From an uncultured bacterium (GTDB lineage: Bacteria; Verrucomicrobiota; Lentisphaeria; Victivallales; UBA1829), in assembly GCA_949290385.1 (NCBI GenBank), contig CASERY010000158.1, forward strand, positions 1 to 52,079: a DNA stretch of 52,079 nt, in the 5' to 3' direction. A program made the translations under genes and the position numbers. Shown piece after piece: positions 1 through 52,079 of this stretch; position 1 is the stretch's first letter, and every line of letters starts with the position of its first letter. The notes under the pieces were generated by a model. The model worked only from the letters and a program-made list of their open reading frames with translations, was not told where the DNA came from and did not search any database.

Positions 1-633
1 AGCGATCAGCTTCCCGAATTTCCAGAACCGTTTGATTTCGGGGATCGGACACTCCTTCATGCAGAGCATCTTGAAAAGGAACAAACTGTTGTTGCATATG
101 CGATTCCCGGCATTCCGGAAAATTCTCCGGACCGCTTTGCACTCACCCTGCTTTCCAGAGTGATGGGTTCCGGCATGTCGTCACGTCTCTTCCGCACTAT
201 CCGGGAAGAAAGGGGCCTCGCCTATTATGCAGGGATGTTCAACAGTCCTCAGATCGGAAGCGGCCTGATGGTTTTCTATGCAGGAACCCAGGCGGAATCC
301 GCTGAACAGGTTGCAGAACTCATCGAAAAAGAACGGAAAAAAATGGCGGAAGAAGGCCTGACTCAGGAAGAATTCGATTCTGCCAAAGCTTAGATTCTTT
401 TCCAGCTTGAAGATGCCAAACAGGATGGATCTCTGCTCTGCGCCCAGGCCGCCTTGGCGGAATACTTTGGTCTCGGCTGTTCAGAAACGGATAGGAAAAT
501 TAAAGCCATCCGTGAGCTCACCCTTGAACAAGTCAATCGGACGGCTGCAAGACTCTTTTCCACACACGTCCGGGCACTCTGCATTGTTTCTCCTGAAAAA
601 GAAGTGAAATTTCCTGATTTTTCACAAAAGTAA
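1..633 (+). CDS. M16-family zinc peptidase (C-terminal part, 5' truncated by window edge)
   Basis: The reading frame is open from base 1 and ends in TAA at 631-633, so the first part of the gene lies outside the window. The visible part matches the inactive C-terminal half of M16 (pitrilysin/processing-peptidase-like) proteins: a core with GSGMSSRLF and a following REERGLAYY segment, which are typical of the C domain. The HxxEH zinc motif would be in the missing N-terminal half. An in-frame TAG (391-393, codon 131) falls in a helix reading DSAKA-X-ILFQLEDAK. M16 relatives commonly have AKxQL-type helices there, so glutamine fits well. After the TAG the frame continues with a normal M16 C-terminal helix and strand. 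Family confidence is good; substrate unknown. Confidence 0.8.
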
Positions 634-721
634 ATTGAAATCTTTGCATTTCGTTTTAATTTATAGTCAGATACGGGGATTCCCGCAACATATTTTGATG
701 CTTTTCTGCGGGACTCCAATG

Positions 722-739
722 TGTCATAAAGTTATGACA
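722..739. promoter_or_regulatory. Perfect 8-bp inverted repeat, operator-like
   Basis: TGTCATAA and TTATGACA are perfect inverted arms separated by 2 bp, 45 bp upstream of the LysM lipoprotein start. The size and spacing look like a dimeric repressor or activator site, but no cognate regulator can be named. Confidence 0.4.
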
Positions 740-783
740 GAAAAAATCAACAACAGACGTTTTCAAATAGATGGAGGTTTATT

Positions 784-2346: not shown

Positions 2347-4563
2347 ATGCCAGGATTCTCTTCCTACTTCTTCTCCATAAAAAATTTAATTTTCCTTCTA
2401 AGCGGAAGTCTTTTCCTTTTCTTCCTGCGGGTTCAGGAAATCATTTCATCCTTTTTCCTTCATGATGAAGGGGCATGGGCTTTTTTCTGTGGAATTCCAC
2501 TTCTTTGCTTGGCATTGGGCCTTTTTTCCGGCAGACTCAATACCGCAGGGGCTTTACCTTCTGGTCAGACTGGTCAGCAGGAAGAAAAATCCGGGACATG
2601 CCACAGACAGTAGAACGGTTTCACAACCGTCCCGGGAAAAACATGCAGAGAAGGACATTTTCTATGGATTACAGGCTTTCTTCTGCTGACGGATTCAGCC
2701 GCTGTACATGCACAAACTCTTCAATATGGATGGCCCGTTTTCGGCCTCTTCTGCGCCGCATGTCTGGGAACCGGATTTTTTTTCAAATCTTTTTATGAAC
2801 CATTCCCGGGGAAATTTCTTTCGTCAAAACTGCTGCCGCCCACAGCACTGGGAATTGCTTTCTTTGCGCTTGCAACTTATTGGTTCCCCGAATACTGTCG
2901 TCGTTTCATCCATATTCTTCCTTTAATCCTGTTTGCTTTTGGTTGTTTTGTCTTTCGGCATGACCTGATCCGTCGGAAACGGGTCTGCATGCTTTATGCA
3001 GGTCTTTTTATTCTTTTGCTCTTCCAGCTGTCCAACTACCCGCAGCCTGCAAACGGCATATTTACAGAGATCCCGATTTATCTGAACGGACGCACTCTGA
3101 AATTCCATGAAACCGCTGACAACCGTCTGGAAGTCTACAGAGACAGCATCTACATGGGAACGATTGAATCGTGGCAGGAAATTTTTCAAAGGATTCCTGA
3201 AACTGCGGCCCTTCTGGCAGAACTTTCTCCGGAACGAGAAAATACAGTTCTTTTAATTGCACCGGAATACACTTCCGCCATTGGACCGTTTTCCATGATA
3301 AAAAACCTGGGACAGCTGCAGTTCCCAATTTTTTCTGAAAAAATGTTGCCTGTAGTCAATGGTCATTTTTATGAAACGGCTTCTTCCGAAAATGAAAAAC
3401 TGTCCATTGCGTTCATGGCGCCATCCCGGTATTTCAGCCGCAGCTAGTTTGAGCGGAAGGATCTGATCCTGATAGATATGCCATATCCAGACAACCGTGC
3501 CAGGAACTATTATTTCACACAGGAATATTTTCTCCGCTGCCGGGAAATGCTTCTGGATCACGGAATTCTTGCCCTGATTCTGCCTCAGGACAACGGACTC
3601 ACGTTAAAAGAACAATTTCAAGCAGAAAGCATTCTGGAATCGACCTTGAAGAGTGTTTTTCCCCATGTTCTGCGTCTGGAGGGCAAGCATTCAATCCTTC
3701 TGGCATCGGAAAGGACAGATTTGACAGCAGATTCGGAAAAACTTGATGAACGGGCAAAGTCCGTCGGACTTTATCCGACAGCATTGCTTCCGGATAATCT
3801 TCTCTCCGCGGTTCTCCCTATTTTTGCCGCCAGGAAAAATGATCTCTCCAAAGATTTTCCGCAGCAGGAAATGCCCATAAATACCGTTCAAAATCAAGCC
3901 TTAAGTCATATGATTGCATCCATTCGTGAATCGAACAGCTCTCTGCAACAACAGTGGCCTGTCCGTATTTTTTCCAAAATCCCCACCGCAGCAGGTGCAG
4001 GATTAACGCTGTTGTTTCTTATTTATCTGCTTATGCGCTATTTTATTTCCGGAAAAGCGATTCATAAGAATCTTTTCCGGGCTTTTGAAAACGGTTTCTT
4101 CTCCGGAGGCATTCTTCTTTTTGTCCTGACACAGCTCAGATATTATGACTCCGCCCGGGAAACAGGTTCTCCGGAATTTCTGACGGCTGTTTTTTGCCTG
4201 TCCCTCTGTTTTTTTGCAATGCGCAGGCTATCTGAACGGCGTTTTCTTTCGCCCTGCATAGCTGCGGTTCTCTTCTTCCTGATTTACCGGAATGGACTGA
4301 ACTTGGTTTATCCTGTTCTCCTGTTAATTTTCAGTGCCTTGGGCGTATGCTCCATGCAAAACTGTTTTGAAAGGACCATTCATTCTGGAAGGGATCTCTT
4401 TTTGATTGGCCGTTATACGGTTCTGGGACTCGCGGTTTCTCTGTTGATTTTTCCTGTATTTCTGGCCTTTCAGAACGGCATCTGGGTCTGGGTTGGAATA
4501 TTGATGCTGATCCGGATTTCCCATGCACGTGCCGTATCCTTTTTCCCCAAACAGCTTCGCTGA
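2347..4563 (+). CDS. Polytopic membrane protein with spermidine/spermine-synthase-like domain
   Basis: Read with TAG as sense, this is one 738-aa protein. Two in-frame TAGs occur, at 2611-2613 (codon 89) and 3445-3447 (codon 367), and all three open pieces share one frame. The N-terminal third holds several hydrophobic segments. The middle is soluble and contains a methyltransferase-fold stretch with DLILIDMPYPDN just after the second TAG, then a YFTQEYFLRCREMLLDHGIL segment as in SpeE-like proteins. The C-terminal third has about six membrane segments. Related fused membrane aminopropyltransferase-like proteins are common in bacteria, but catalysis is not shown here. The start ATG at 2347 lacks a clear Shine-Dalgarno sequence, so the N-terminus is uncertain. 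Confidence 0.65.
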
Positions 4564-11261: not shown

Positions 11262-12755
11262 ATGGATTCCAGAGAGATTAAAATTCTCAGCAGCAGACTC
11301 GTTCCGGCCCCCAGAGAATGTACCTTCAAGGATGGTCCGGAATATCTCCTGCAAAATCAATGCAAAATCGCTGTCAATGTCGCAGATCTCACAGATATTG
11401 AAGAAAAAGTTTATGCCTTGTGCAAACAATACTGGAATATTCAGCCGGCACTCACGCTGAAGAAAAATGCTTCGGCGGCGAAATTCAAACCGGATGCCTA
11501 CCAGATAAAAATCACGGAAAAACAGCTCACTGTTACCGCTGAAGCTCTTACAGGTGTAATGAATGCCTTTAAAACCCTTCGCCAGCTGGCAGAAGTTCAG
11601 CGCGGCACAGAAAAAGTAACGGGCTATTTTCTGGTTCAATCTGAAATCAAGGATGAGCCTGCATTGGCGTTCCGGGGAATCCACTTGTGCATCTTTCCTG
11701 AAACGCCGATCTGGGATATCGAAAAGCAAATCCGTCTGGCAGCCTATCACAAATTCAATTATGCTGTGATAGAAACCTGGGGAGTGTTCCCCTTCGATTC
11801 CCATCCGGAATTCTGCTGGGCAGATAAGAAAATCAGCAAGGATGAGTTTAAACGGCTTGTCCGGCTAGGAAAAGAGCTTGGCATCACACTGATTCCTCAG
11901 TTCAATCTCCTCGGACATGCTACAGGAGCCCGTGCCACCACGGCAAAACACGTAGTGCTGGATTACTATCCGGCCTATCAGCCGCTCTTTGAACCGGACG
12001 GTTGGTCCTGGTGTCTCAGCAATCCTGAAGTCCGCAGAATTCAGACTGACCTGGTCATGGAAATGTACGATCTTTATGACCGTCCTCCCTTCTTCCATAT
12101 CGGGTGTGATGAAGCAGATAATATCGGCACCTGCCGTGACTGTCGCAGAAGTTCCCTCAAAGATCTTGTACGAGATTTGATCCTGTACTTTCACGATCTG
12201 CTGTAGGAACATGGAGCTCGTCTAATTATGTGGCATGACATGCTCCTGGAATCCGGAGATAAACGCTGGAGCGGCTATACCGCATGTGGTCTTCCTGAAC
12301 ACAAGCTCAGTATGCTCTACAAGGAACTTCCACGGGATATTGTCATTGCAGACTGGCAGTACGGCTATAATAAAGCTGCACCGGAAGACCCTGAACCGGA
12401 ATGGCCGACTTCCAAATTTTTTAACAAGGAAAAGTTTGATGTTCTTGTCTGTCCCTGGCTGAATGAAAACGGAATTATCAGCCTCGGCAGAATGGCAGAA
12501 AAAGAAAAACTAACTGGTATTCTGGAAACAACGTGGCATATTTCTCATTGTTCCAATTTCCAGACCATCTTTAATATAGCAGCCAATGCTGGATGGAATC
12601 CGTCCAAGGCATCCGGCTCAAATACAGCCTCCCGTCTTGCAGCTACTATGCACACCCGTCAAATCGAATGGGATATGGATATTGTAGACTATGAAAAAAC
12701 CGGGTGGAATCAGTATCAGATGGATCCGGGACATCATCCTCATCCTGTCTTTTAA
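11262..12755 (+). CDS. GH20 beta-N-acetylhexosaminidase-like protein (contains UAG)
   Basis: Read with TAG as sense, this is one 497-aa protein; the TAG is at 12204-12206 (codon 315). Residues about 1-125 form the small alpha/beta domain that precedes the barrel in GH20 enzymes. The barrel begins at FRGIHLCIFPETPIW. The catalytic pair typical of GH20 is seen in FFHIGCDEADNIG. The TAG sits in a surface helix, FHDLL-X-EHGARLIMWHDML, where GH20 relatives have a variable polar residue, and the barrel continues at once. No signal peptide, so cytoplasmic; it would release GlcNAc or GalNAc from short oligosaccharides. It ends the sugar operon before a strong terminator. Confidence 0.8.
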
Positions 12756-14493: not shown

Positions 14494-15501
14494 TCAACTT
14501 TTTTTCTCCAGCATCTCAATTCGTCTTTCCAGAGACGGATGCGTCGAAAAAAGATCGGTCCATGCAGGCGGTGCAGCAATCATCATGGCGGCAGCCGGAT
14601 CATCTGCTGTTACGGTTTCTCCAGCATGAGAATCATCCATGAGTCTGCGCAGTGCACCAGACATGGCATCCATTCCGACCAGCGATGCAGCCGTAGCATC
14701 CGCTTCGAACTCCCGGTGGCGTGAAAACCACAGTAAAACCAAATCCCCCAGCAGAAACAGGATATTAACAATGACAAAGTGAATCAGCCAGGATAACAGT
14801 TTTGACTTTTTACAATAATCTTCATACCAGTCCGTCTGCCGTATGACGAAATCAACGACAATGACCGTAATATTAATCAAACTCTGCAGCAAAGTCATTG
14901 TCAACATATCCCCATTGGCAATATGAGCAGTTTCATGAGCCGCAACCCCGGCGATACTGTCTGAATCCATCTGTCTGAGCAAGCCGGAACTGAAAGCAAT
15001 CATGGAGTCATTTTTAGAAGCCCCGGTTGCAAAAGCGTTCATCTCTTCGCTTTCATAAATTCCAACTTCCGGCACTGCGGGCAGATTGGCTCGATTGGCC
15101 AGCGATTGAACCAGTTCCAGCAGATATTTCTCCTGATCATTTTCTACTTGTTCGGCTGTAATAATCCTGATCTTGTACTGCTATTTCAATAAAGATTTAG
15201 AAAAAAACAGCATCACAAATGGAACCACACTCCCGATCAGCAGCAGAAAAATCGCAGTTCCAATCCCGGCATGAGGATCAAAAATCCGGACAATGATCAT
15301 GAGTATAATCATTACTCCGACATTGGCCGCCATGAAAATCCCCATAGATTTCCCGAAACCTCCCCCCAGTCGAATCTGAGAGGATGAACGGATGCGATTA
15401 AAAATGGCTGTCACATCTTCCTGCGTCTGCCATTTTCCACAATAACGGCATTTTCGAGCCTCGTCCAAAATTCCTTTATTGCAATAAATACAGGATTTCA
15501 T
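14494..15501 (-). CDS. HtpX-like M48 membrane metalloprotease with N-terminal zinc ribbon (contains UAG)
   Basis: One 335-aa protein when TAG at 15181-15183 (codon 107) is sense; both halves share one frame. Residues 3-25 are a zinc ribbon (CIYCNKG...CRYCGKW). Two membrane helices follow (about 52-72 and 80-101). After FSKSLLK-X-QYKIRIITAEQ comes the M48 domain: EVGIYESEEMNAFATG, the zinc motif HETAH within GVAAHETAHIANGD, two more helices, and FEADATAASL carrying the third ligand. HtpX-type enzymes degrade damaged inner-membrane proteins. An N-terminal zinc ribbon is unusual for the family. The start is 2 bp after the stop of the upstream zinc-ribbon gene. Ends in TGA. Confidence 0.85.
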
Positions 15502-16896: not shown

Positions 16897-16981
16897 TGGT
16901 GGTGGGGGATGGATTCGGACCATCGAAGGTACAACCGGTAGATTTACAGTCTACTGCATTTGACCGCTCTGCAACCCCACC
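16897..16981 (-). tRNA. tRNA-Tyr (GUA)
   Basis: An 85-nt class II tRNA. Acceptor GGTGGGG pairs with CCCCACC, the anticodon loop reads ACTGTAAAT with anticodon GTA, and the T loop reads GGTCCGAATCC. There is a long variable arm. The discriminator A and the CCA end are encoded. Confidence 0.95.
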
Positions 16982-17002
16982 AAAGGGTTTGATTGAATAA
17001 AC

Positions 17003-34439: not shown

Positions 34440-35945
34440 ATGAAAATCCTCCATACAGCTGACTGGCATTTAGGTGCGACTCTGGCAGACAATCGCAGAT
34501 ATGCGGAATTCCGTCAGTTTTTAAACTGGCTTGTCCAGCTTATCCGGGAACAGCACATAGAATGTCTTCTGGTCTCCGGAGACATTTTTGACAACAGCAC
34601 ACCTTCCATTCATGCCCAGGAGCTGTATTACCGTTTTCTGGCAGATGCCGGGGATGCCGGATGCAGAACCTGTATTCTTATTGGAGGCAACCACGATTCT
34701 CCCGCCTTTCTGAATGCGCCTGCCGGACTTCTGCAGCGTTTTTCCATCCATACTGTCGGTTCTCTACCGGAGACAATGGAAGACGCTCTTTTCACGCTCA
34801 CCGATCCATCCGGAAAGCCATGCGCTGTTGTCTGTGCCATTCCTTATCTGAGAGAAAGAGATTTGAGTTCTGTCTACCGGGAATCATGGAATCCATCCGG
34901 GAACCCGGAACAACGCTTCAGCGAGGATTCTCTGCATTTCACCGGATCTGAAAGCATTGCAGATCATGTACAGCGTGTCAGACGGGCACTTCATCAAACG
35001 ATCCACTCGATTTACCAGGGGGCTGTTCAGCGGAGAAATTCCTTTCCCGAGGAATTTCGCACAGTTCCCATTCTCGGCATGGCACATCTGTTCGTTGTTC
35101 CCGGAGATGAATTGGACATACCGCAGGACCCTGCCGCCGAACCCATTCTTGGGACTCTTTCCGCCATACCGGCCGGAATGATTCCGCCGTTTGATTATCT
35201 TGCACTGGGTCATATTCATCAGAGCTATGCCATTAAAGGAGCACCTTTTATCCGCTATTCTGGTTCACCGATTCCGAAAACTTTTGCGGAAGCCAACCAT
35301 CATAAACACGTCATTCTTCTGGATACGGAACAACAGGACTTGCATCCATTTCCCATTGAAGTACCTGTTTTTCAGAAAATGGCAACGGTTTCCGGAGACT
35401 GGGAACATATTCAGGATCAGCTACACAAACTAATCCAGCTTCAGGAATCTATATGGATTTCAGTGGAATATACGGGCTATGCAGTTATGCCGGATTTGCC
35501 GGAATTGACCCGGGAGCTTGTCCGTGGGACCCCGGCAGAAATTCTTCAATGCAGGAATATGCACGCAATGGATGATCTGAAAGGCCCCGGCAGAAATCAG
35601 AATATCCGTCCGGAGGATATGACGCCAGAAAAAGTTTTTTGTCTGAAACTGGAAACTGCGGAAGTTCCCGCAGAGCAGAGACCGGAACTTTCCAACGCAT
35701 TCCAGGAAATTCTGAATTTGGTTCAAACCCCATCCGACGCTGGAACAGTCGGCACAGAAATCTCCCACCCTGCCGCCCCAGAGGACAGAAAAAATAACAA
35801 TGCAAAAGGCCCCGTACAGACCTCCGAGCAAAAAACCTTTCAGACAAGTCCGGATGCAGAACAAACAACGCCATGGCCTTCCAATCCCGTAACGGCAGAT
35901 GCTGTTTCAGCTCCATCTGTTCTCCAAAATGTACCGGAAAGGTAA
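34440..35945 (+). CDS. sbcD: Exonuclease SbcCD, subunit D (Mre11-like nuclease)
   Basis: A 501-aa subunit of the SbcCD nuclease, which cuts hairpins and protein-blocked DNA ends. The calcineurin-like metallophosphoesterase motifs are all present: HTADWHLG (residues 5-12), LLVSGDIFDNSTP, ILIGGNHDSP, LGMAHLFV and LALGHIHQS. The C-terminal 130 residues (capping domain and a long Pro/Gln/Thr-rich tail) are longer than usual. ATG 34440 gives the canonical MKILHTADWHLG start. sbcC begins 5 bp after the stop. Confidence 0.95.
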   Translation: MKILHTADWHLGATLADNRRYAEFRQFLNWLVQLIREQHIECLLVSGDIFDNSTPSIHAQELYYRFLADAGDAGCRTCILIGGNHDSPAFLNAPAGLLQRFSIHTVGSLPETMEDALFTLTDPSGKPCAVVCAIPYLRERDLSSVYRESWNPSGNPEQRFSEDSLHFTGSESIADHVQRVRRALHQTIHSIYQGAVQRRNSFPEEFRTVPILGMAHLFVVPGDELDIPQDPAAEPILGTLSAIPAGMIPPFDYLALGHIHQSYAIKGAPFIRYSGSPIPKTFAEANHHKHVILLDTEQQDLHPFPIEVPVFQKMATVSGDWEHIQDQLHKLIQLQESIWISVEYTGYAVMPDLPELTRELVRGTPAEILQCRNMHAMDDLKGPGRNQNIRPEDMTPEKVFCLKLETAEVPAEQRPELSNAFQEILNLVQTPSDAGTVGTEISHPAAPEDRKNNNAKGPVQTSEQKTFQTSPDAEQTTPWPSNPVTADAVSAPSVLQNVPER

Positions 35946-35950
35946 TTGTC

Positions 35951-38900
35951 ATGAAAATAGAAAAGCTGCATTTCAAAAATATTAACTCCTTGTATGGTGA
36001 ATGGGAAATAGACTTTACCCAGCCAGAATACACTCAGAACGGACTTTTTGTCATTACCGGCCCAACCGGTTCCGGGAAAAGTTCTATTTTTGATGTTCTC
36101 TGTCTTGCCCTTTTCGGAGCCACGGCCAGAATCTCTGTCAAAGGCAAGGAAAACGATGCCTTTTCCCTGGGGAAACATGAATTTCTTGCAGAAGCCGTCA
36201 TTCTGCTGGATGCAGGCCGTTTCCGATTCCGTTTTGAGCAGACACGTTCTAAACGGAAAAACTCTCTGGGCAACCTTCAGTCCTGCAGGAGAATCATCTA
36301 TCAGGGAGAGAACGTCTACGCGGAGGGAAACAGCGCCTCTGCCAAAGCCGCTGAACAGCTTCTGGGAATGGATCTGGAACAGTTTCTCCGGACCGTTATG
36401 CTCGCTCAGGGCAGATTCACAGCCTTTCTGGAGTCCGGGGAAAATGACAGAGCCATGCTTCTGGAAAACATTACAGGCACCGGCATCTACCGGGATATAT
36501 CCAAAGAGGTTTTCCTCCGGGCCAAAAATGAGGAAGAAGTACGCCGGCATATTCTGGACCGGCTGAACAACATCCAGCAAATAACTCCAGACTCTCGCGA
36601 ACAGCTCTTACAGCAGAGCGCAGATCTGGAAAAAACATTGCTCCTTCTTCAACAGGAACGTCAGGAATACGCGGATCTCTGTGCACTCTTTGATCAGTAT
36701 ACAAAGAATACAGAAGCTTTACACCAGCAGCAACTCCATGAAAAAGAACTTTTCCTGGAAGAACAATCCTTTCAAAAGGACGCCCTTCGTCTGAAACTGG
36801 CAGAAAATGCCCTTGAATGTGAATCCGCCTATCTTTCCCGGGAAGAACTCATCCGGACACAGGCCAGTCACCAGAAAAACCTTCAGCAGGCCGAAGACCA
36901 GGCGCAGCAACTCAAAGACCAGACGGCTGAAACAGAAAAACACCTTCTGCATGCCTCAGAGCAATTTGCCCTCTTTCAGGAATAGGAAAAAAAACTGATG
37001 CCTCTCCTGCAACAGGTCCGGACGCTGAAAACACGGGAAGAAGAAAAAAAAGTTCTTCTCAGGAAAAACGAAACCGATCTGTCCCTTTCCAAGCAGGAAT
37101 GTCTTGCGCAACAGAATCTTCTGGAAAAGCTGAACAAACAGGCACGCCAGGATGCTGCCGAACTGCAGGATACTCTTCTTTATCTTGAGCAGCATGCAAA
37201 AGACGCACAAATTGAATCCGTTCAAGCGCATCTGACCTCCTGCCGCGATATGCTCGTCTATACTTTCCGAAATGGCCTGACACTCTATAGACGTCAAAAT
37301 GAAACCACCTCTCACATGACGCAGCTCCGGCAGAAGATTTCTGAAATCCAGCAGGATCTTCAGTCCCGGCATGCCCAATCTGCTGAAACTGAAGCTGCGC
37401 AGAAGCAGTTGCAAACACAAATCCAGACGCTGCTTCAAGGACAGACTCTCCAATTCCATCAGGAACGTCTCCAGTCCGCCCTCCGGGAACAAGCCCTTCT
37501 CGCGCGAATTGCAGGCTACGAAGAAGAACGAAGACTTTTGAAAAAAGGGATCCCATGTCCTCTCTGCGGATCGCTGGAACATCCCTATGCAGAAAAACAT
37601 CCCTCTGATGAACAGTCTGTTCTGGCCCAGAAAATCTCCGGCCTCCAAAAACGTCTGGAAGACTATCAATCTCTTGAAAAACGCAGAAAAGAGCTTGACA
37701 GTCTCTCTCAGCAAGCCGAAACCGAAAAAATCCGTCAGGAAAACGCTCTTCAAAATTTTCAGCAGCAGCTTGCTGCACTTCAGAGCCAGTACCTCCAGAA
37801 TCAAACGGAACAGCAATCCATTGAAAAGCAAATTCTTTAGAAGATCAAGACATTCAATGATCTGGTCTCTCTTCACAATCTCGGTCCTGCATTAAACGAA
37901 AGTCTGTCTGAGGATATTTTCAAATCCGACCGCCCCGGTTCCAAAGAAGAAAAAACACCATCCTTCTTTCCTGATTCCGCTGTCATGCAAACCATCTTCA
38001 AAAATCTTGAACAGCGGCAAAAATGCTATCATAATGCCTGCACACTCCGGGATCAGGCACAAGAACGTGCCCAGACCCGCATGCTCAAGGAATCTGCCGC
38101 AAAATCCCGAGTACAGTCTTTGCTAGTTCGCCTCCATCAGCTGCAGGAAAATCGACAGGATGTTCTGCAGGATCTGGACAGCCTTCACCGTGATCTTTGT
38201 CATCTTTTTGAAAATAAAGATCCAGATCTGGAAGAAAAAGCGTTCAAAGAAAAATTCCGTCAGGCACAGCTTCTGGAATAGAAAGCCCTTCAGACACGAG
38301 ACATTGTTCAGCAGAAATATTCCAGTATTCTTGAAAAAATTTCTCAGCTTCAGCACGCTCTCACCTCGCTGAATCCATCTCTGGAACAAGCTCAAAAGCT
38401 CTGGTCCGAACAAAGGCGTCAGAATGGTTTTATTTCGGATGAAGACTTTCTGGCTGCCCGCATGGATGCCGCTGAACGAAGAAAGCTCCGGGAGAAAGCT
38501 GAATCTTTGCAGAAAAAACGTATTACACTCACAGAACGACTTCAAACTTTATCCCGGCATCGGCAGGATCTGGAACAGGTTCTGTCCGGGAAAGACTGTA
38601 TGGAATGTCAAGAGCATCTCAGCAAAGTGCAAAAAGAACTGCTGGAGAAGACCTCTCAGCTGGGAGCTGTCCGGCAAAAACTGGCAGATTGTGAAGAAAA
38701 AACCAGACAGATAGCCAGTCTCCAGGCTGAACTGGAAAAACAGAGTGCAACAGCCCGAAAATGGTCCCGTCTGAATGAACTGATTGGATCTGCATCCGGA
38801 GATTCCTTTGCCAGATTTGCAGAAAGCGTCATGTTTGACTATCTTCTGGAGCTGGCGAACCAGGAGCTGAAACGACTCAGTGACCGTTATACGCTTGTGC

Positions 38901-39274
38901 AGAATCCCCGGAAAACACTTGAGATCCAGGTTCAGGATTCTTATCAGTTTGATGCAGTCCGGTCTGGAGAAAATCTCTCCGGCGGAGAAAAATTCCTGGT
39001 AAGTCTTGCTCTTGCACTGGGACTCTCGCACATGACCCGCAAAAAGAATCGAATTGATTCGCTCTTCCTTGATGAAGGTTTCGGAACGCTTGATCCGGAT
39101 ACTCTTCAAATGGTCCTGCAAGCCATCGCATCCCTGCATCAGGATGGAAAACTTATCGGAATTATTTCCCATGTTCAGGCCGTCAGTGATCAAATTCCAT
39201 GCAGAATTGAAGTCATGCCTTGTGCAAAAGGACGAAGCATCCTGAACGGTCCCGGGGTGAAACGGCTGGATTAA
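35951..39274 (+). CDS. sbcC: Exonuclease SbcCD, subunit C (Rad50-like ATPase; contains three UAGs)
   Basis: An 1107-aa SMC-like ATPase. TAGs occur at 36983-36985, 37838-37840 and 38279-38281 (codons 345, 630, 777), all inside Gln-rich coiled-coil arms (LFQE-X-EKKL, KQIL-X-KIKT, QLLE-X-KALQ), with one frame throughout. Walker A is ITGPTGSGKSSIFDVLC (about residue 33), the Q-loop is MLAQGRFTAFLES, the zinc hook is CPLCGS with CPLCG-type spacing at about 536, the signature is NLSGGEKFLVSLALALGLS, and Walker B is SLFLDEGFGTLD. Length matches SbcC. The canonical start is ATG 35951 (MKIEKLHFKNINSLYG), 5 bp after sbcD. TAA overlaps the convergent neighbour's stop. Confidence 0.93.
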
Positions 39275-41163
39275 GGTTCAGCGCTCCCGTTACCCTGCGC
39301 CTCATCATAAAGGACCTGGGAAAAGGAAGAAATATCCACAGGCCCAAACCATCGGTTCAGAGTCAGGTCATATCGGTAGACCGGTTCATGGATGGCGTTC
39401 TCTTTACACCACAGTCTTAAATGATCCGGATACAAATCTTCAAAAATCTGCATCAGATGCCAGTTTTTCGGATAGGCTCCGGTATAACCATGAAACGTCT
39501 TGATCTTGTATTTCAGGGAAATCTCCATGGCGGCCATCTGGGCAAAAGCCGGCGCCATTGCATAATCATGCCACTGAGGACTCTCCTTGTCCGCATCCTC
39601 GGGAGGCTTCTCCGGCATTTTTTGAGTAACAAAAAAAACACGACAGTCCTCCGGAGGAGCTGCAATGCTTTCCAGGAATGCCCTGTTCCGCGAAATGCTG
39701 ATCTCTTCCACGCCCCCCAGATTTAAATGATCAACAAACAGCAGCAGCGCCAGGAACAAAGCCACAAGCCAGCCGGCTTTCCAAGAATGCAGTTTTCTTT
39801 GAAGGAGATCCAGAAGAAACGCCAGTAAAATTCCAGCAGGAAACAACAAAATCAGCATCATTCTGGATACAGTCCGTATTGCAGAGACTCCGGGAAAGTA
39901 TTTCCAGAGGGGATACCAGGTGCATTGAATGCCGTTGCCTCTTTTAATCGCAATCATACACAATGCCATACCGAACAGCAGAGCAAAAAGCCAGGCATTC
40001 TCACGAGTCATTGATTTTTTCATATGAAACAGCACAAAAAGGCCTGCCGCCAAAAGCATTGCCCATGTAATCAGAGGGAATCCCAGATACATTTCATAAT
40101 TGAGAGGCCGATCCCATGAATCCGGGAAAGTCTTACGCATCCAGCTGCTCCAAAGAACATTCCCAGGACCCACGTTGAAGTAATCAAACCATTTCAGAAG
40201 AGTGTCTGCCAGATCCCGCCAGACTCTTTTGTACCCCTGTTCCACGACCGGAACGTAAATCATCAGAAGAGGCACAGAACCTGCCGCAGTCAGAGGGAAT
40301 GCCACAATCGGGTCAAATTTACGAATTTTGATCCAGTTCACGAACTTCCGGAAATCATCTTTTTCCTGTCTGTAAAGGAAGGCAAGCAGTGCTCCCGCGA
40401 AAAAGGGAACCGCCAGGAAAACAAGAAAAAACGCCGTATAAAAAGATGTATAAAGAATCCAGAAAAAGATTAGAATTGTCCCGGAAAGAAAAGCCATCCG
40501 CTTCCAGGCAGAAGTCTCCATGCCGCACCTGCAGTAAGCGATTGCCGTGCAGCATAAAGGAACTATCAGGAAATAAGCGTAAAACTGTGTGTGAAATAAC
40601 TTGTGAAGCACAGAATTTCCAAAGCAAATCACCATCATTCCTGCCAGAGACGCAATCAGATGAAATCCCAGCTGTTTTCTCAGGAAGTAAAAACAACACA
40701 CTCCACCCACTCCATGCAGCAGAAAAAAACTGATCTGCTAGGCACGGAACATATCCATCCCCAGCATCCGGAACGGAATTTCCATTACAGCCAGAGGAAG
40801 AGACAAGTCTGAAAATCCCATGGCATTCCGAAAAGGATAAAAGAAACGCGTTTCCCCGAAATGCAGCTCCCCTTTGAAAAACTGGATCCAGTGTTCTGCG
40901 ATGAGAATATTGAACCGGGCATCTCCATCGTCTCCGGCAATCAGATCAAACCCTGATAATAGGGTCTTATGATAAAAAATGCAGAAGAGAATTATGAAAA
41001 CGAATGAAAAAAGAAGCCATTCCCGCAGACTTTTTCTATGAAAGAGTCGCCTTTCCTCTGCAGGATGCAAGATCTCCTGACTGCCGGAACATTTTTCCAT
41101 ACAGGCGTATTTTTTCAAAGAATCTTTCCGTTCTTTTCCCATCACTAAACCATTTCCCTTCAC
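39271..41163 (-). CDS. Polytopic membrane protein, GT-C-like paralogue 1 (contains UAG)
   Basis: A 630-aa protein with about ten membrane helices when TAG at 40738-40740 (codon 142) is sense. The first extracytoplasmic loop carries GDDGDARFNILIAEHW, an Asp-rich motif shared by all three tandem paralogues and reminiscent of GT-C glycosyltransferases; the activity is unproven. The TAG is in FRA-X-QISFFLLHG; the paralogues read RSVQISFYLL and RATQIVFSL there, so the site is variable (V, T). The C-terminal soluble part follows RVFFVTQK. Possible starts are GTG 41163, which overlaps the upstream gene's TGA, and ATG 41142. Stop TAA overlaps the sbcC stop on the other strand. Confidence 0.75.
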
Positions 41164-43196
41164 TTCTGTTCATTCTAAGGGGAGGAAACACTTTTCACTA
41201 CGGATCTTTCTTTTGCAATAGCCTGCTCTCCCGAAAACTGCAATAACTGTCCGGCACCAAGATCCACCGGCCCGAACCATTGATTCCGTATTAAATCGTA
41301 TCCGTACAAGGACGTTATTTCCGGATGCAGACGAGCCCATTCCCGGAGATTCTGCAAATAACGCTCCCCGGAAACCTCCAGAAGAGCCCATCTTTTCGGA
41401 GAATTTCCACTGTACCCGTTGACCGTTTTCAGATTGTAATGCAAGGCTATCTGCATGGCATCAATCTGGGCATAGACCTGTTCCTGCATATCCACAGGAT
41501 GTTCCTTCTAAACTCTGGACAGAATCGTCTGCTCTTCCTCTCCAATAACAAAAAAGACCCTGCAATCCGGCGGAGGTTCCGAAACCGATTCCAGGAAAGC
41601 CCTGTTTTCTGAAATACTGAAGTGCTCCATGCCCCCAATATTCAAGTGATCCAGATACAGCAGAAGAGCAACAACCGTCATAAATACCGCACCCAGTTTC
41701 CGGCCATGAAGTTTTTCCTGGATTCGGTTCAAGAACACAGCCAGCAGAATCCCGGCTGGAAACATCAGAATCACCATCAGACGCGTCTCAGAACGAATAG
41801 CCGATGCACCCGGAAACAATCTCCAGACTGCACACCAGTTGGAATACATGAGTCCCCCTACAGTTAGCAATGTCGCACACAAGCCACATGAAAACAATAA
41901 GATAAAAAGTCCTCTTCTTTGCCGGTTCATTTTTCCGCATTTCCAAAGCCATCCAAAAAGGGCTGCCCCCAAAGCCGTATAGATGCATCCTGCAAGCAGA
42001 CAAATCATCATTGAATACTTGGTTGCAAACCCTCCATTTCCCTTGGCAATCAGGACCATGCACAAAACACAGCCACCCCACAGTCCGAACAGCCACGCAT
42101 TTTCCCAAAGGATCTTCTTGCCGAACATTCTCCGGATGACATCCAGCGAAGCCCCCAGCAGAAGAATTCCTGTAATCCATGGAAATCCATAATACATTTC
42201 ATGGCATATAGGCCGCATCTAAGCTTCCGGAAACCATTTGGAAAAACAGTCGCTCCACAGAAAATTTCCAGGGCCCGGGTTAAAATAATCATACCAGTCT
42301 GAAAGCGTCAGCACAACTTCCTGCCAGGACCTCTCATATCCCCCGCTTACAACTGGATAGTAAATACGGAAAAACGGCCAGAGCTACACAAGTCCAAGGA
42401 TCTACAGAATTCCAAAGTCCACCATTCTGATCCGGAACCAGTTTCTCAGCGCCTTCAGATCCTTCCAGTTCTGTCTGGCAATGAATGCCACGGCAAGTCC
42501 GAAAGCAAACGCCACCGAAAAGAATGCGGTAAAAAATGCTGTATAGTAAGCAGTATAAAGGATCAGAAGAAAAATAAAAAACGCTCCTGAAAGAAAAGCC
42601 ATTCTCTTCCATCGCGGACATTTCTCTGTGCAGCGACAGTAACAAATCAACAGACAGCACAGCAGCGGCAAAAGAAAATAAGTATAAAATTGTGTGTGAT
42701 AAATTTTTTGAAGAACCGGATTTCCAAAACAAATAACCATCATCCCGATGACCGACGGCATGAAACGAAGTTTCAACAGCTTCCGTAACAGATAGAAACA
42801 ACTGCCCGCTCCAATAAAATGAATCAGGGAAAAAACAATCTGCGTTGCTCTTAAAGCATCCAGTCCCATCCATCTGAACGGAATTTCCATCCAGGCAAAC
42901 AGAATGGAAAGATCTGAAAATCCCATGGCATTCTCAAAGGGATAAAAAAAGCGTGTTTCGCCAAATCCCAGTTCCCCCTTCCAGTATTCAATCCAATGTT
43001 CTGCGATGAGAATATTGAACCGGGCATCTCCGGCATCCCCCGGAAGCAGATCAAATCCGGACACCAGCGTCTTATGATAAAATGAGCAGAATAATGCCGT
43101 AAACACCAGCAGAAACCATAAAAAATCATGGTTCCTCTGCTTTTTTTCAGGCTCCATTCCGGATAAATCTGTATTTTCAGAATGAAATAAAATCAC
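41160..43196 (-). CDS. Polytopic membrane protein, GT-C-like paralogue 2 (contains five UAGs)
   Basis: A 678-aa protein with TAGs at 42402-42404, 42384-42386, 42219-42221, 41508-41510 and 41175-41177 (codons 265, 271, 326, 563, 674). There is no other stop and no frameshift. It aligns end to end with its neighbours: the first loop GDAGDARFNILIAEHW, the helix VDFGIL-X-ILGLV-X-LWPFF (paralogue 3: VDFCIAGLIGMVGLIPFW), and FPEA-X-MRPICHEMY (FPEAGERVYYHE and FPDSWDRPLNYEMY in the others). After the last TAG only NEQK remains before TGA (41160-41162), which overlaps the GTG start of paralogue 1. Under the standard code it would be five fragments. Confidence 0.75.
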
Positions 43197-43394: not shown

Positions 43395-45368
43395 TTATTT
43401 CTCCGCGGACACAAGAGACAAATTCTACTTTGCCTGCAAATGACAGTCTTTCCTCTGGGAAACATGCAAATCCACCGGACCGGACCATTTCTTATCATTT
43501 AAATCATAACAGTAAAGAGGCTCCTTTATAGAATGCCGTTCAACCCATGCTTGAAGAAGCTGCGGATAAGATTCTTTGAAAATCAAATTCAAACTCCAGT
43601 TCTGCGGAGCATTTCCACTGTATCCGCAAACGGTTTTAAGCTTGCAGTACAGAGCTATTTCCATTGCATCCAGCTGGGCAAAAGACTGTTCCAGCTCTAT
43701 CCCTTCCCCTGGTATCTCCCCCTTTTTCGTCACAAAAAAGATCCTGCATTCTTCAGGCGGCGGCACGATGGATTCACGAAAAGTCCGGCGTTCGGCAATG
43801 CTGAAATGTTCATTTCCATTCACATTCAAATGGTCCAGGAATAACAACATCCCGATTCCGGCAAGGACAATTCCACCAAACTTCCAGCCGGAAAGCTTTT
43901 CAGCCACTCCGTTTAGAAAAAACGTTAGAATAATCCCTGCAGGAAACAGCAGAATCAACAGTATTCTGGAAACAACTCTTATCCCTGACGCCCCTGGAAA
44001 AATTCTTCGCACCGTATCCCATGCGGCCATGATCCCTTCCCCACGGAGAGCAAGAATCACACATGACACAAATCCAAAGATCATGGCTGCAAGGTACACA
44101 TTCCTTTGTGGCATATTTTTTTTCAAACGACACATTCCCCACACACAGCTCATTCCCAAAAGAAACAGCGTTATCCATGGAAATCCGCTCCAGAATTCAT
44201 GATAGTAAACACGCTCCCCCGCTTCGGGAAAGTTTTCAAGAAATCGCCTTCCCCACAGAAAATTGCCGTTTCCCGGGTTGAACAGATCATACCAGTTCAG
44301 GAGAAATGGAGAAATGTCTTTCCACGTTCTCTTAAATCCCTTTTCCAGCACAGGAGCATAAATCATCCAGAAAGGAATAAGTCCAACCATACCGATCAGA
44401 CCTGCAATGCAAAAATCCACAACCCTTATCCGGACCCATCGAAGAAACAGAAAAAAGTCCTGCGCATTCTCACGAAAAAGAAACACCAGCAAAAGTCCCG
44501 AAAAAAACAAAGAGACATAAAAAGCAGCAAAAAATGCCGTATAATATCCTGTATAAAGGATCAAAAGCCCCAGAAGTTCCGCCGCTGTCAGCCAGCCCAT
44601 ACGCCTCATCCACGAAACATTTTCTGAACATCTGCAGTAACAGATCAGGCAGTACAACATGGGCGGAAGCAGGAAGTATGTGTAAAACTGAGTATGCCCC
44701 AGTTTCTGAGCTAAAGCATTTCCAAAGCAAATCACCATCATTCCTGTCAGGGACGGCAGGAGATGAAAATGCAAAAGTTTCCGGAACAGATAGAAACAGC
44801 TTAAAGCCCCCAGAAAGTGGAGCAGATAAAAACTGATCTGAACAGACCTCATCGCATCCAGTCCGACCCCTCTGAACGGAAGTTCCATAACAGCATACAG
44901 CAGAGAAAGATCCGAAAACCCCAGAGTAAAATCCAATGGATAAAACATCCGAACCTCTCTGAAATTCAGCTCCCCTTTGAAAAACTGGATCCAGTGTTCT
45001 GCGATCAGAATATTGAAGCGGGCATCACCCACATCTCCGGGAAGCAGGTCAAATCCGGAAGCCAGTGTCTTATGGTAGAACGAACAGAATAATACTGCAA
45101 ACACCAGCAGGAACCATAAGAAATCGCTGTTTCTTCGTCTTCTCTTTCTCTCAGATAAAGCGTGACTGCTTTCACACAACCGCCAAGAGTGTTTTCCCGT
45201 TTCAGGTCCTTTCGGCACACGCTTCTCTGACCCTCCCGCCTCCGGCAGCTTTTTCTCTTCACTTACAATTCCACAGGCTCCCTCTTCTGTCATACCAGCA
45301 GATTTTCCCTTTTTTAGAAACAGCTTTTTCAAATCTCTCGAATCCTCCACAGGCTTCATTCGTTGCAT
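43395..45368 (-). CDS. Polytopic membrane protein, GT-C-like paralogue 3 (contains UAG near C-terminus)
   Basis: A 657-aa protein if TAG at 43425-43427 (codon 648) is sense; a TAG stop would shorten it by only ten residues, so this site alone does not discriminate. The N-terminal 80 residues are charged and soluble, then come about ten membrane helices with GDVGDARFNILIAEHW in the first loop. The C-terminal soluble domain contains LDAMEIALYCKLKTVCGYSGNAP, shared with both paralogues. Extracytoplasmic sugar transfer or lipid-linked glycan assembly is a guess from the fold pattern. Start ATG 45368 is uncertain because the frame is open upstream and no good ribosome site is seen. Confidence 0.72.
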
Positions 45369-49154: not shown

Positions 49155-49628
49155 TTTTCCGTCCAGGAAAGGTCCCGGCATACAGCCTGCAAATCCGGCG
49201 CCACACTTTCTCAGGCGTTCCGGAAGAGCTTTTGTGCTTTCTTTCCTTTTCTTCTCCATACCGCATGCCTCACAGGATGCCGCATTTTGAATGGAGACAT
49301 CCTCTGCAAGAATTCAGGAATTTAAGAATAAGAAAATGGAAGTATAGGCTATGCAGTCTATTCCCGGCAAGGATAGTTACCTTTCCAAATTAGCCTGAAA
49401 TTTTTTTGTACTGCCGGCTCCGGAAAATCCAAGGGACTTTCTTGATGCTTTTCCATCATTTCTCCGGGACAGAAATTCGGAAGGGTTCCTTTTCAGCAAG
49501 CCATCTCCAGGCAGGAAATTCCTGTCCGTGAAAAATGAAATCTTTTCTCACGGAAACAGTTGAAAAAACACCCCTTGCGCTGTATGTTAGGCGATTATCT
49601 ATCAATTGTTTTTCAGGAGTTGATTTTC
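49155..49628 (+). other. Intergenic region with promoter
   Basis: About 470 bases without a gene. The promoter at 49560-49588 and the GGAG ribosome site of the next gene are the only signals seen. Confidence 0.5.
49560..49588 (+). promoter_or_regulatory. Promoter for the DUF1015-kds unit
   Basis: TTGAAA (49560-49565) and TATGTT (49583-49588) with a 17-bp spacer, about 40 bp before the start codon. Confidence 0.5.
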
Positions 49629-50858
49629 ATGGCAGTTTTCAGGCCTTTTCATGCATTAATGCCTCAGGCAGCACAGGTGGCAAAAGTAGCCGCTGTACCA
49701 TACGACGTTGTCAACACAGAAGAAGCTGCCGCTCTGGCAGAAGGCAACCCTTTAAGCTTTCTTCGTGTATCCCGTCCGGAAATTGAAATGCCCCCCGGAA
49801 CCGATCTGCATTCTGACGCAGTTTATGCAAAAGCAAAAGCCAATTTTGAACGTCTCTGCAGGACTGCACCTCTTTCCCTGGATCCGGAAGCAAATCTGTA
49901 CGTCTATTCTCTGAAAATGGGAGACCGCACACAAATCGGAATTGCCGGCACAGCCTCTGCCGCAGAATATGACTCCAATATCATCAAGAAACACGAGAAA
50001 ACCAGGTAGGACAAGGAAGCCGACCGGGCAAGACATGTCATGGAGCTCCGTTCCCAGACCGGGCCCGTTTTTCTAACCTACCGTGATTCAGCCAGGATCA
50101 ATGCCGTTGTTCAGGAAATTATCCGCTCTGAACCATATTTCTCCTTCACCGCCAGAGACGGAGTGGAACATAAACTCTGGAAAGCAGGCAGCCGCAGCGA
50201 AGAACTCAGTCGGTGCTTTGCCGCGGATGTTCCCTGCTTTTATATTGCAGACGGTCATCATCGCGCGGCGTCAGCCTCTCATGCGGCAGCACGCTGCAGG
50301 TAGGAGAATCCCCACCATACAGGCGATGAGGAATACAATTACTTTCTGGCAGTGGCTTTTCCTGCTTCAGAATTGAAAATTCTTCCCTATAACAGAGCTG
50401 TACATGATCTCAACGGGCTGAATCCGGATGAGCTTATTGCACGCATTCAGGAAAAATTCATTGTCAATGCAACCAACAGTCCTGAACCGCCCGTCTGCGG
50501 CAGTTTCTGTATGCTTCTGAACGGGAAATGGTACCTGCTGACACCCAAATTTGATCTGAAAAAACTCGATGTCATCAGCCGTCTGGACGTGACAGTGCTT
50601 CAGGACAATATTCTGGGCCCGATCCTCGGCATTGATGATCCCAGAACAAGCCAGCGCATTGATTTTATTGGAGGCATTCGCGGTACGGGAGAACTTGAAA
50701 GGCTCCAGGCCATGCGCAAGGCCGCTGTCTGCTTCTCCATGTATCCGACAACGCTCCAGCAGCTCATGGATATTGCCGATGCAGGGGAAATTATGCCACC
50801 AAAGTCCACGTGGTTTGAACCCAAACTCCGAGACGGCCTTGTATGTCATAATTTCTAA
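49629..50858 (+). CDS. DUF1015 family protein (contains two UAGs)
   Basis: A 409-aa protein when TAGs at 50007-50009 (codon 127) and 50301-50303 (codon 225) are sense; all parts share one frame and the length is normal for DUF1015. Conserved stretches surround both TAGs: IIKKHEKTR-X-DKEADRARHV (family form HExTRxDKExDRxxH) and DGHHRAASASHAAARCR-X-ENPHHTGDEEYNYFLAV (family form DGHHRxAS...NPxHTGxExYNyfl). The aligned residues in relatives are variable and mostly polar or small. The N-terminus FRPFHALMPQAAQVAKVAAVPYDVV is typical. Biochemical role not known to me. Ribosome site GGAG before ATG 49629. Upstream of kdsB. Confidence 0.9.
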
Positions 50859-51029
50859 GTTCCAGAAACAGAGACAAAACCGTTTTCTTTCGGAAGGTGG
50901 AAGCCCTTGTCCGGAAGAATCATCCGGGAAGTCATCCAGCATTCCGGCAGCCAAATCATGGCCGGCCGGATGGCCCCGTCAGCAAAAAGCTTCCGCTTAA
51001 CAGAAAGACAGAGAAAGAGAGATTGAATC

Positions 51030-51794
51030 ATGAAAACAGTCGCAGTTATACCTTCCCGTTACGGGAGCACCCGTTTCCCGGGAAAAGCTCTTCAGCTTCT
51101 GGGCGGAAAACCCATTGTTCAGTGGGTCTGGGAACGAACGGTGCAGTCGAAGGTTGAAACCGTGCTTGTGGCCACAGACGACGAACGCATTGCTCAGGCT
51201 GTTACAGCTTTCGGCGGGAAAGCGGTCATGACATCTGCCAATCATCCGTCCGGATCGGACAGGATCTGGGAGGCGGTCCAGGGTCTTGATGCGGAACTTA
51301 TTATCAATGTGCAGGGCGACGAACCGCTCATGCCTCCGGAAATTATCAATGACTTGATTGATGCGATGGAAGGTCCGGACAAGCCGGATATGGGCACAGT
51401 TGCTGTTCCATGTGCCCGGGAAGATGTTGCCTGCAATCCGAATCTTCCAAAAGTCGTGCTTTCCGCAGACGGAAATGCTCTTTATTTCAGCAGAGCCATG
51501 ATTCCGTTCCTTCGGGAAGGAGGCACTGAAATGCCGGAAATCTACCGTCATTGGGGAATCTATGCCTACCGCAGAGAAGCTTTGAAACGCTTTGTGTCGC
51601 TTCCGGAAGGAAATCTGGAAAAATGCGAAAAACTCGAACAGCTCCGTGCCCTTGAAAACGGTATGAAAATCAAGGTAATTAAAACGCATTTTGACAGCAT
51701 CGACATCAATACGCCGGAAGACCTGGTACAGGCAGAGGAATTTATTCGGACTCATGGCATATCTGCAGAAGGAAAGGACCGGAAATCATGCTGA
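51030..51794 (+). CDS. kdsB: 3-deoxy-manno-octulosonate cytidylyltransferase
   Basis: A 254-aa enzyme activating Kdo as CMP-Kdo for lipopolysaccharide. The nucleotide-binding N-terminus IPSRYGSTRFPGKALQLLGGKP is canonical. TDDERIAQAV, NHPSGSDRIWEAV, INVQGDEPLMPPE and HWGIYAYRREALKRFV follow, as in KdsB. Length as expected. Its TGA overlaps the kdsA start (ATGCTGA), so the two are translationally coupled. No in-frame TAG. Confidence 0.96.
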   Translation: MKTVAVIPSRYGSTRFPGKALQLLGGKPIVQWVWERTVQSKVETVLVATDDERIAQAVTAFGGKAVMTSANHPSGSDRIWEAVQGLDAELIINVQGDEPLMPPEIINDLIDAMEGPDKPDMGTVAVPCAREDVACNPNLPKVVLSADGNALYFSRAMIPFLREGGTEMPEIYRHWGIYAYRREALKRFVSLPEGNLEKCEKLEQLRALENGMKIKVIKTHFDSIDINTPEDLVQAEEFIRTHGISAEGKDRKSC

Positions 51795-52079
51795 AAACGG
51801 TTTCTGTCGGAGATTTTCATATTGGAGACGGCTGTCTGACGGTTCTGGCCGGCCCCTGCGTGGCCGAAAGTCTTGATCTCTGTCTGCAAACCGCTGAACA
51901 GATGATCAGAATCTGTGACAAACTGCATGTAAATTATGTCTTCAAAGCCTCTTTCGACAAAGCCAACCGTTCTTCCGGCACCTCCTTCAGGGGCCCCGGC
52001 ATTGCAGACGGACTCAAGATTTTGGAAACAGTCAAGGAACGCTTCGGAATCCCCGTTGTAACAGACGTTCATGAAACAG
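51788..52079 (+). CDS. kdsA: 3-deoxy-8-phosphooctulonate synthase (partial, 3' truncated by window edge)
   Basis: The first 97 codons are seen. KdsA condenses phosphoenolpyruvate with arabinose 5-phosphate to Kdo-8-phosphate. The N-terminal signature LTVLAGPCVAESLDLCLQTAEQM and FKASFDKANRSSGTSFRGPG are diagnostic. The start ATG 51788 overlaps the kdsB stop. Confidence 0.95.
   Translation, partial: MLKTVSVGDFHIGDGCLTVLAGPCVAESLDLCLQTAEQMIRICDKLHVNYVFKASFDKANRSSGTSFRGPGIADGLKILETVKERFGIPVVTDVHET

What the first reader, a model, noticed from the sequence alone, without database searches (positions are those of the whole stretch)
1..52079. UAG appears to be a sense codon in this genome
Seen: 22 in-frame TAG codons lie inside 13 genes (positions in the CDS entries), with the same frame and the same protein family on both sides in the recognisable ones. 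No in-frame TAA, TGA or frameshift is needed for any gene. Of 39 gene ends in the window, 24 are TAA, 15 are TGA and none needs TAG. Known: UAG recoding (for example code 15, UAG=Gln) is described in some phages and eukaryotes; I know of no well-described bacterial lineage with it on chromosomal core genes. Inference: the host has reassigned UAG, and standard-code gene calling has fragmented its genes.
Basis: partly seen in the sequence, partly recalled or inferred. Interest (0 to 1): 0.95.

Follow-up and report, generated by a model that had tools for sequence, protein, structure and literature searches.

The report
Bacterium reads UAG as amino acid
An uncultured Lentisphaeria bacterium seems to have lost the protein that stops translation at the codon UAG and carries UAG inside many of its genes, apparently a natural change of the genetic code of a kind I found no report of in bacteria, although which amino acid UAG stands for is still open.

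Summary
Confirmed, and it holds beyond the window, which lies in a 2.68 Mb, 78%-complete Lentisphaeria MAG. Against a standard-code relative (G008), a 31% sample of the genome gave 60 in-frame TAG, 0 TAA and 1 TGA in 55,720 aligned codons; the reverse control gave none that withstands inspection in 54,144. TAG lies inside alaS, secY, mreB, dapA, recF, recJ, rny and prfB. The cause is visible: by score 37 of 40 relatives have RF1, and in 29 of 30 loci cut out it lies beside rpmE; here rpmE is followed by 402 bp without RF1 similarity and then the exporter that follows prfA in several relatives. Only RF2 was found. 'No gene ends in TAG' is weak support, because G008 hardly uses TAG stops either (1 of 162); that scarcity may have made RF1 dispensable (codon capture). 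Unsettled: the amino acid. Gln and Lys lead narrowly, but no residue exceeds 22% at TAG sites (matched sense codons 63%). None of 46 tRNAs pairs with UAG; no PylS. UAG may be read by near-cognate tRNAs at tolerant sites.

The parts
160..633 (+). M16 peptidase C-terminal domain gene (frame open to the window start), TAG at 391-393
   Evidence: the one homologue aligned has K at the site
2347..4563 (+). 738-aa ORF, no Pfam match, TAG at 2611 and 3445
11262..12755 (+). GH20-like glycoside hydrolase, one TAG at 12204-12206, inside the GH20 match
14494..15501 (-). peptidase M48 protein, TAG at 15183, just before the domain match
17532..18194 (-). DUF6198 protein, TAG at 18032 and 17993, both inside the domain match
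20485..21465 (-). ComF-like protein (DZR_2 + phosphoribosyltransferase; the name ComF is recalled), TAG at 20778 between the two domains
29592..31397 (-). alanine--tRNA ligase, TAG at 30308 (codon 364)
   Evidence: 16 of 29 same-order loci have Gln there, 8 Leu; no TAG in this gene in the 35 other same-family genomes
32900..33505 (+). LexA-type repressor, TAG at 33200 (codon 101), N in G008
35873..39274 (+). SbcC/Rad50-type ATPase, TAG at 36983, 37838, 38279
39271..41163 (-). first of three tandem paralogous proteins without Pfam match, TAG at 40740 (V and T in the two neighbours)
41160..43196 (-). second tandem paralogue, TAG at 42404, 42386, 42221, 41510, 41177 (the first three align to G in the third paralogue)
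43395..45368 (-). third tandem paralogue, TAG at 43427, 10 codons before TAA (not informative alone)
49560..50858 (+). DUF1015 protein, TAG at 50007 (R in G008) and 50301 (A in G008), both inside the domain match
16897..17076 (-). tRNA-Tyr(GUA) and tRNA-Gly(UCC), a pair present twice in the genome; neither anticodon pairs with UAG

Best explanation
This is a Lentisphaeria bacterium that has lost release factor 1 and uses UAG as a sense codon. Shown: in-frame UAG in conserved genes across the sampled genome; RF2, which reads UAA and UGA, is the only class-I release factor found; the RF1 gene is absent from its conserved place between rpmE and an ABC exporter. Inferred: UAG stops had already become nearly extinct in the ancestor, which made RF1 dispensable (codon capture); after its deletion UAG reappeared by mutation inside genes and is now decoded by an elongator tRNA. 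That tRNA is either an ordinary near-cognate one, tRNA-Gln(CUG) being my first guess, or a dedicated tRNA(CUA) in the unassembled fifth of the genome. The change looks young or leaky: UAG is rare and sits at weakly conserved positions.
For: 60 TAG vs 0 TAA and 1 TGA in 55,720 codons aligned to G008, reverse control clean on inspection. 116 of 304 genes with homologues carry TAG, 195 in 125,817 codons, on 38 of 44 contigs with such genes; aligned TAG sites on 26 contigs. TAG lies in SecY, RF2, MreB, DapA, RecF, RecJ, RNase Y, RecN and AlaRS by curated models. One class-I RF in the genome, an RF2. By score 37 of 40 relatives have RF1; in the 30 best loci, the only ones cut out, it is RF1 in 30 and L31 lies beside it in 29; here rpmE is followed by 402 bp without RF1 similarity (best E 2.6) and then the exporter. 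G008 ends 1 of 162 comparable genes in TAG. Two tandem paralogues (88% identical) share one TAG and differ at another, TAG vs TCG. Gln is the best single residue in the fixed model over 60 sites, Lys 2 log units behind; AlaRS column Gln in 16 of 29. The tRNA-Gln(CUG) anticodon arm is that of G008 and G016.
Against: On the amino acid: A 13, K 11, Q 7 of 60, against 63% self-identity for sense codons matched by alignment and local identity; over the 60 sites each of the 20 fixed models, Gln included (-16), scores below plain background composition, and on a stricter subset of 32 Lys (+4) beats Gln (-8); in mixture models Lys, Gln and Ala are nearly tied. Three TAGs of a window paralogue align to Gly, two of them in a hydrophobic stretch, odd for Gln. 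No tRNA(CUA) at E up to 10. On the recoding: 2 of 140 gene ends have a TAG within 5 codons of the partner's end, about what stray sense TAGs would give. Stops inside genes are also reported now and then in relatives: AlaRS of G037 (TAG) and G042 (TAA), not examined; one RND gene of G023 (TAG) and one of G016 (2 TAA), not examined; one gene of G016 with a real in-frame TAG and TAA. The MAG is 78% complete, so a moved RF1 copy is not wholly excluded.
Confidence: 0.93

Rival explanations
1. UAG = glutamine in the ordinary sense (code 15-like), read by a dedicated tRNA-Gln(CUA) that happens to lie in the unassembled part of the genome.
For: Gln best in the fixed likelihood model over 60 sites; AlaRS site is Gln in 16 of 29 same-order loci. 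The 46 tRNAs lack other isoacceptors that I would expect (recalled), e.g. Ala(UGC) and Ile(GAU), so one tRNA could be missing.
Against: Gln at only 7 of 60 sites (12%) although CAG sites keep Gln in 59% and the rare CAA in 43%. The fixed Gln model scores below background, and Lys leads on a stricter subset. No CUA tRNA in the part that is assembled.
Confidence: 0.35
2. UAG has no fixed meaning: RF1 is gone, no cognate tRNA exists, and several near-cognate tRNAs (Gln, Lys, Glu, Leu, Ser, Tyr) insert different residues, tolerated because the codon is kept at permissive sites.
For: Flat residue spectrum A13 K11 Q7 E5 L4 S4 N3 T3 F3; TAG density is 1.8-2.3 per 1000 codons in genes under 55% identity to the best homologue and 0.95 in genes over 75%; no tRNA(CUA); engineered RF1-less E. 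coli was seen to insert Gln, Tyr, Asp and Val at UAG (PMC6207430, passages read).
Against: 195 UAGs in 304 genes, several essential by recalled knowledge, would be a heavy load if decoding is poor, and this genome keeps a tmRNA gene, a rescue system that acts at UAG in recoded E. coli. Ala, the commonest residue at TAG sites, is not a near-cognate residue. A model of single-base origin from near-cognate codons fits worse than background. Most TAG sites have one relative only, so a fixed meaning may be blurred.
Confidence: 0.27
3. UAG encodes pyrrolysine.
For: UAG is the Pyl codon (recalled) and sites are not matched by any one canonical residue.
Against: No PylS above cut-off: one hit of 20 bits against a cut-off of 178, and the same search also rings below the cut-off in 12 of 14 control genomes. 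No atypical tRNA. UAG is spread over housekeeping genes.
Confidence: 0.02
4. The TAGs are pseudogenes, sequencing errors, or a phage or foreign contig.
For: It is a fragmented MAG of 168 contigs with 2% contamination. The relative G016 does show one gene with an in-frame TAG and TAA, so such damage occurs in these MAGs.
Against: Here 60 TAG stand against 0 TAA and 1 TGA, over many contigs and in core genes; AlaRS, RF2 and L31 are closest to the same family among what was compared.
Confidence: 0.02

Closest known systems
UGA reassignment in bacteria (Mycoplasma and insect symbionts UGA=Trp, Gracilibacteria/Absconditabacteria UGA=Gly)
   Same: stop codon turned sense on a bacterial chromosome; loss of the matching release factor is described for UGA/RF2 (PMC8204192, passages)
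   Different: here UAG and RF1, the mirror image. PMC8629427 (passages read) states that all bacterial stop reassignments then known concern UGA; that its own five new bacterial codes are arginine-codon changes is recalled, the passage shown was cut
Genomically recoded, RF1-less E. coli
   Same: RF1 absent, RF2 alone ends translation, no cognate tRNA found for UAG
   Different: engineered and freed of UAG; here natural, with UAG inside many genes (PMC6207430, abstract and passages read)
Genetic code 15 (UAG=Gln) in crAss-like and other phages
   Same: UAG inside genes, Gln among the best residues
   Different: here host core genes and host release factor loss; Gln not established (PMC9523058, start of abstract in listing only)
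Ciliates and other protists with UAG or UAR sense codons
   Same: UAG as sense codon
   Different: eukaryotes (PMC11687900, title and start of abstract in listing only)
Pyrrolysine-coding archaea and bacteria (recalled)
   Same: UAG as sense
   Different: no PylS above cut-off and no atypical tRNA found

Membership tests
Stop-codon reassignment of UAG (nuclear/phage code 15 type) | in-frame UAG in many conserved genes, other stops absent | tested here: met
   60 TAG, 0 TAA, 1 TGA in 55,720 codons; control
Stop-codon reassignment of UAG (nuclear/phage code 15 type) | UAG not used to end genes | tested here: inconclusive
   2 TAG among 140 gene ends near the partner's end, but the standard-code relative uses almost none either
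Stop-codon reassignment of UAG (nuclear/phage code 15 type) | release factor no longer reads UAG | tested here: met
   RF1 gene missing at its syntenic place, only RF2 found
Stop-codon reassignment of UAG (nuclear/phage code 15 type) | tRNA with CUA anticodon | tested here: inconclusive
   none among 46 tRNAs, and one more weak match, inside the tmRNA gene, at E up to 10; the MAG is 78% complete
Code 15 (UAG = Gln) | Gln in homologues at UAG sites | tested here: inconclusive
   7 of 60 sites; best of the fixed models but below background, Lys close and ahead on a subset
Pyrrolysine code | PylS | tested here: not met
   in the part assembled
Natural counterpart of RF1-less recoded E. coli | RF1 absent while RF2 is kept | tested here: met
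UAG-recoded phage | viral genes | tested here: not met
   alaS, secY, mreB, dapA, recF and others

The most novel reading that the evidence does not exclude
A natural bacterium in which UAG has no single meaning: RF1 has been deleted, no cognate tRNA exists, and UAG is translated by competing near-cognate tRNAs (or, less likely, as an unknown non-canonical amino acid), so that the lineage is caught in the unassigned/ambiguous phase of a codon capture that theory predicts and that I know otherwise only from engineered strains.
Probability: 0.28. Interest if true: 0.97.

Novelty: new variant of a known kind. Interest (0 to 1): 0.92.

Why it matters
I found no bacterium in print with UAG as a general sense codon or with natural loss of RF1 (paper searches; titles and abstract starts of capped listings, open PMC papers, no bioRxiv collection). 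It is the mirror image of the known UGA/RF2 changes and would make codon capture testable in one bacterial family: relatives with RF1 (and, in the one tested, almost no UAG stops), and one genome without RF1 and with UAG inside genes. It also means that standard gene calling breaks over a third of the homologue-bearing genes sampled from this genome (116 of 304).

Tried and rejected
Pyrrolysine: no PylS above cut-off (an earlier try, used an accession that proved to be another synthetase family and says nothing here). Suppressor tRNA: RF00005 at E 0.1 and 10, ARAGORN on loci, a pattern of CUA loop + T-loop over the whole assembly (21 hits against 96 for the backwards control). The one of these hits with a convincing T-loop, C164:78-121, has no anticodon stem (my reading) and no tRNA was called there. 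A stem-based scan of the sampled stretches gave 3 poor candidates. A T-arm pattern was badly designed (67 hits against 93 for the control). Changed tRNA-Gln(CUG): its anticodon arm equals that of G008 and G016. UGA recoding in relative G002, suggested by 'stops inside': the TGA is upstream of the start. Amino acid by deeper homology: a 7-TAG gene was found only in G008 and G016 among 35 other family genomes at E 1e-50, the RND relatives could not be cut out, and the PDB homologues shown for the RND protein have S, K, H, N, A, G and others at its TAG sites by eye. A 3' context effect (A after TAG 40%, after CAG 29%, p about 0.01) is too weak to use. A phage tblastn with the SbcC gene gave only partial matches under 60% identity. 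No structure was predicted.
Full report
What the window is. The window lies at C158:1-52079 of a 2,680,693-bp, 168-contig MAG, 78% complete and 2% contaminated; window GC 46%.

The observation. Recognisable ones are AlaRS, LexA, SbcC, a ComF-like protein, M48 and M16 peptidases, GH20, DUF1015 and DUF6198.

Test beyond the window. I took stretches of this genome (839,789 bp, 31%) and of a 97%-complete relative of the same family, G008 (1,198,365 bp), aligned all G008 ORFs of at least 80 aa to the G000 DNA and kept alignments of at least 45% identity, E up to 1e-20. 190 alignments gave 55,720 codons with locally good alignment: TAG 60, TAA 0, TGA 1. In the reverse direction 54,144 codons gave 2 TAG, 1 TAA and 2 TGA; four of the five lie together in one misaligned stretch, the fifth in an ORF antisense to tRNA-Glu genes (my reading). 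Of 304 genes with a homologue among the fetched loci, 116 contain TAG, 195 in 125,817 codons, on 38 of 44 contigs with such genes; aligned TAG sites lie on 26 contigs. Curated models confirm SecY, RF2, MreB, DapA, RecF, RecJ, RNase Y, RecN, an RND transporter and AlaRS as TAG carriers. By the tool's count no TAG lies in the AlaRS matches of the 35 other same-family genomes, while further out G037 has a TAG and G042 a TAA (not examined). For RND transporters 3 of 3 matches of this genome hold TAG (6, 1 and 3), against 1 TAG (G023) among the 85 other matches listed, one more of which (G016) has 2 TAA. The G016 homologue of a 7-TAG gene of this genome holds one in-frame TAG and one TAA, that of G008 none. 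Two tandem paralogues, 88% identical, share one TAG and differ at another (TAG vs TCG), so TAG has lasted through duplication or gene conversion.

Why UAG no longer stops. In a search of 41 genomes for the class-I release factor domain this one has a single match; it is RF2 (SPF motif as recalled for RF2; TIGR00020 at 525 bits against a cut-off of 370), and the RF2 gene itself holds a TAG where G008 has K. By score and length 37 of the 40 relatives have an RF1-like match; G016 and G046 (72% and 78% complete) have only an RF2-like one, and G001 has fragments; G002, G015 and G050 have a single, RF1-like match (my reading). The 30 loci cut out are the 30 best matches, one per relative: RF1 in 30 of 30, with L31 (rpmE) beside it in 29, the exception being G008; the ABC exporter follows in 7 of these short loci and in longer stretches of G008, G002 and G005, but not of G013. 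In this genome contig C43 carries rpmE (944-1147), 402 bp in which RF1 finds nothing better than E 2.6, and the exporter (1550-3355), 60% identical to that of G008. The simplest reading is that RF1 was deleted in place. In bacteria with the standard code neither RF1 nor RF2 is dispensable (PMC4530459, passage).

Gene ends. For 162 genes whose alignment nearly reaches the end of the G008 protein, the first stop-type codon in this genome is TAA 83, TGA 75, TAG 4; within five codons of the partner's end TAA 74, TGA 64, TAG 2. G008, which has RF1, itself ends these genes with TGA 84, TAA 77, TAG 1; scored in the reverse direction, TAG 2 of 153. So the scarcity of TAG ends is shared with the relative and not a consequence of recoding. 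It fits codon capture: the codon is driven near extinction, then gains a new meaning (model described in PMC8629427, passages read). One listed paper asks why UAG stops are almost absent from highly expressed bacterial genes (PMC8954436, title and start of abstract only).

What UAG means. The G008 residues at the 60 sites are A 13, K 11, Q 7, E 5, L 4, S 4, N 3, T 3, F 3, R 2 and five singles. With substitution frequencies taken from the same alignments Gln is the best single residue, Lys 2 log units behind, Ala 18; yet each of the 20 scores below plain background composition (Gln -16), and on 32 stricter sites Lys (+4) leads Gln (-8). When part of the sites may be unconstrained, Lys, Gln and Ala score 11.4, 10.6 and 8.9 against 6.4 for unconstrained sites alone; single-base origin from near-cognate codons alone scores below background, and a mixture with one fifth of it 9.0. 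Sense codons in the same alignments with the same local identity keep their residue in 63% of cases (standard deviation over draws 6%). TAG density is lower in conserved genes (1.8, 2.3, 1.5, 1.0 and 0.95 per 1000 codons from the least to the most conserved fifth of the identity scale used). The AlaRS site is Gln in 16 of 29 same-order loci, Leu in 8. In the window three TAGs of the paralogue at 41160-43196 align to Gly in its neighbour. I conclude that UAG is tolerated mainly at variable sites and that its residue cannot be named from these data.

Decoding tRNA. The 46 tRNA matches at E 0.1 (one a partial tRNA-Glu at a contig end) were all read and none has an anticodon that pairs with UAG; at E 10 there is one more, of 13.7 bits, which by its coordinates lies inside the tmRNA gene. 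Some isoacceptors that I would expect are missing too, so a tRNA(CUA) could lie in the unassembled part. tRNA-Gln(CUG) has the same anticodon arm as in G008 and G016, so if it reads UAG it does so only because RF1 no longer competes (inference). In engineered RF1-less E. coli UAG was read as Gln, Tyr, Asp and Val, with frameshifting and tmRNA rescue (PMC6207430, passages).

Known or new. PMC8629427 (passages) states that all bacterial stop reassignments then known concern UGA. My nine paper searches (capped listings of titles and abstract starts) showed no bacterium with UAG as a general sense codon or with natural loss of RF1. A verrucomicrobial endosymbiont uses UGA=Trp and keeps UAG as a stop (PMC8204192, passages). 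A 2026 survey of bacterial tRNAs with 4-bp anticodon stems mentions UAG only in passing (PMC13092985, passages). Pyrrolysine use in some archaea and bacteria is recalled, and PylS was not found here.

Limits. One incomplete MAG, one main reference genome, no proteomics, and about a third of the genome for residue-level counts. RF1 loss rests on the syntenic gap plus the search of the assembled part.

Noticed in passing
G008 stretches: The standard-code relative G008, which has RF1, ends only 1 of 162 comparable genes in TAG; UAG as a stop is nearly extinct there already.
   Followed up: yes
window 16897-17076 and C5:12990-13173: A tRNA-Gly(UCC)-tRNA-Tyr(GUA) pair is present twice in the genome with identical tRNA sequences.
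   Followed up: partly
G000 C164:78-121 (-), L268: A tRNA-like fragment with variable-arm-like and T-loop-like stretches near the contig end that does not fold as a tRNA by eye; perhaps a degenerate tRNA.
   Followed up: partly
L274:6990-8861 and L274:9125-10996: Tandem paralogues, 88% identical, share one in-frame TAG and differ at a second (TAG vs TCG): a record of recent codon change.
   Followed up: yes
G002: A 95%-complete relative shows RF1 but no RF2-like match; whether this is an assembly gap or an RF2 change was not tested. Its reported TGA in AlaRS lies upstream of the start codon.
   Followed up: partly
L330 (G016): The G016 homologue of a 7-TAG gene has one in-frame TAG and one TAA; G016 (72% complete) also showed no RF1-like match. 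Damage, sequencing error or something more was not resolved.
   Followed up: partly
window 39271-45368: Three tandem paralogous proteins without a Pfam match, one of them with five TAG codons.
   Followed up: no
L118:20-225 and L122:1-64: Tandem tRNA-Glu(UUC) copies at one contig end and a partial copy at the start of another contig, a likely assembly break at a repeat.
   Followed up: no
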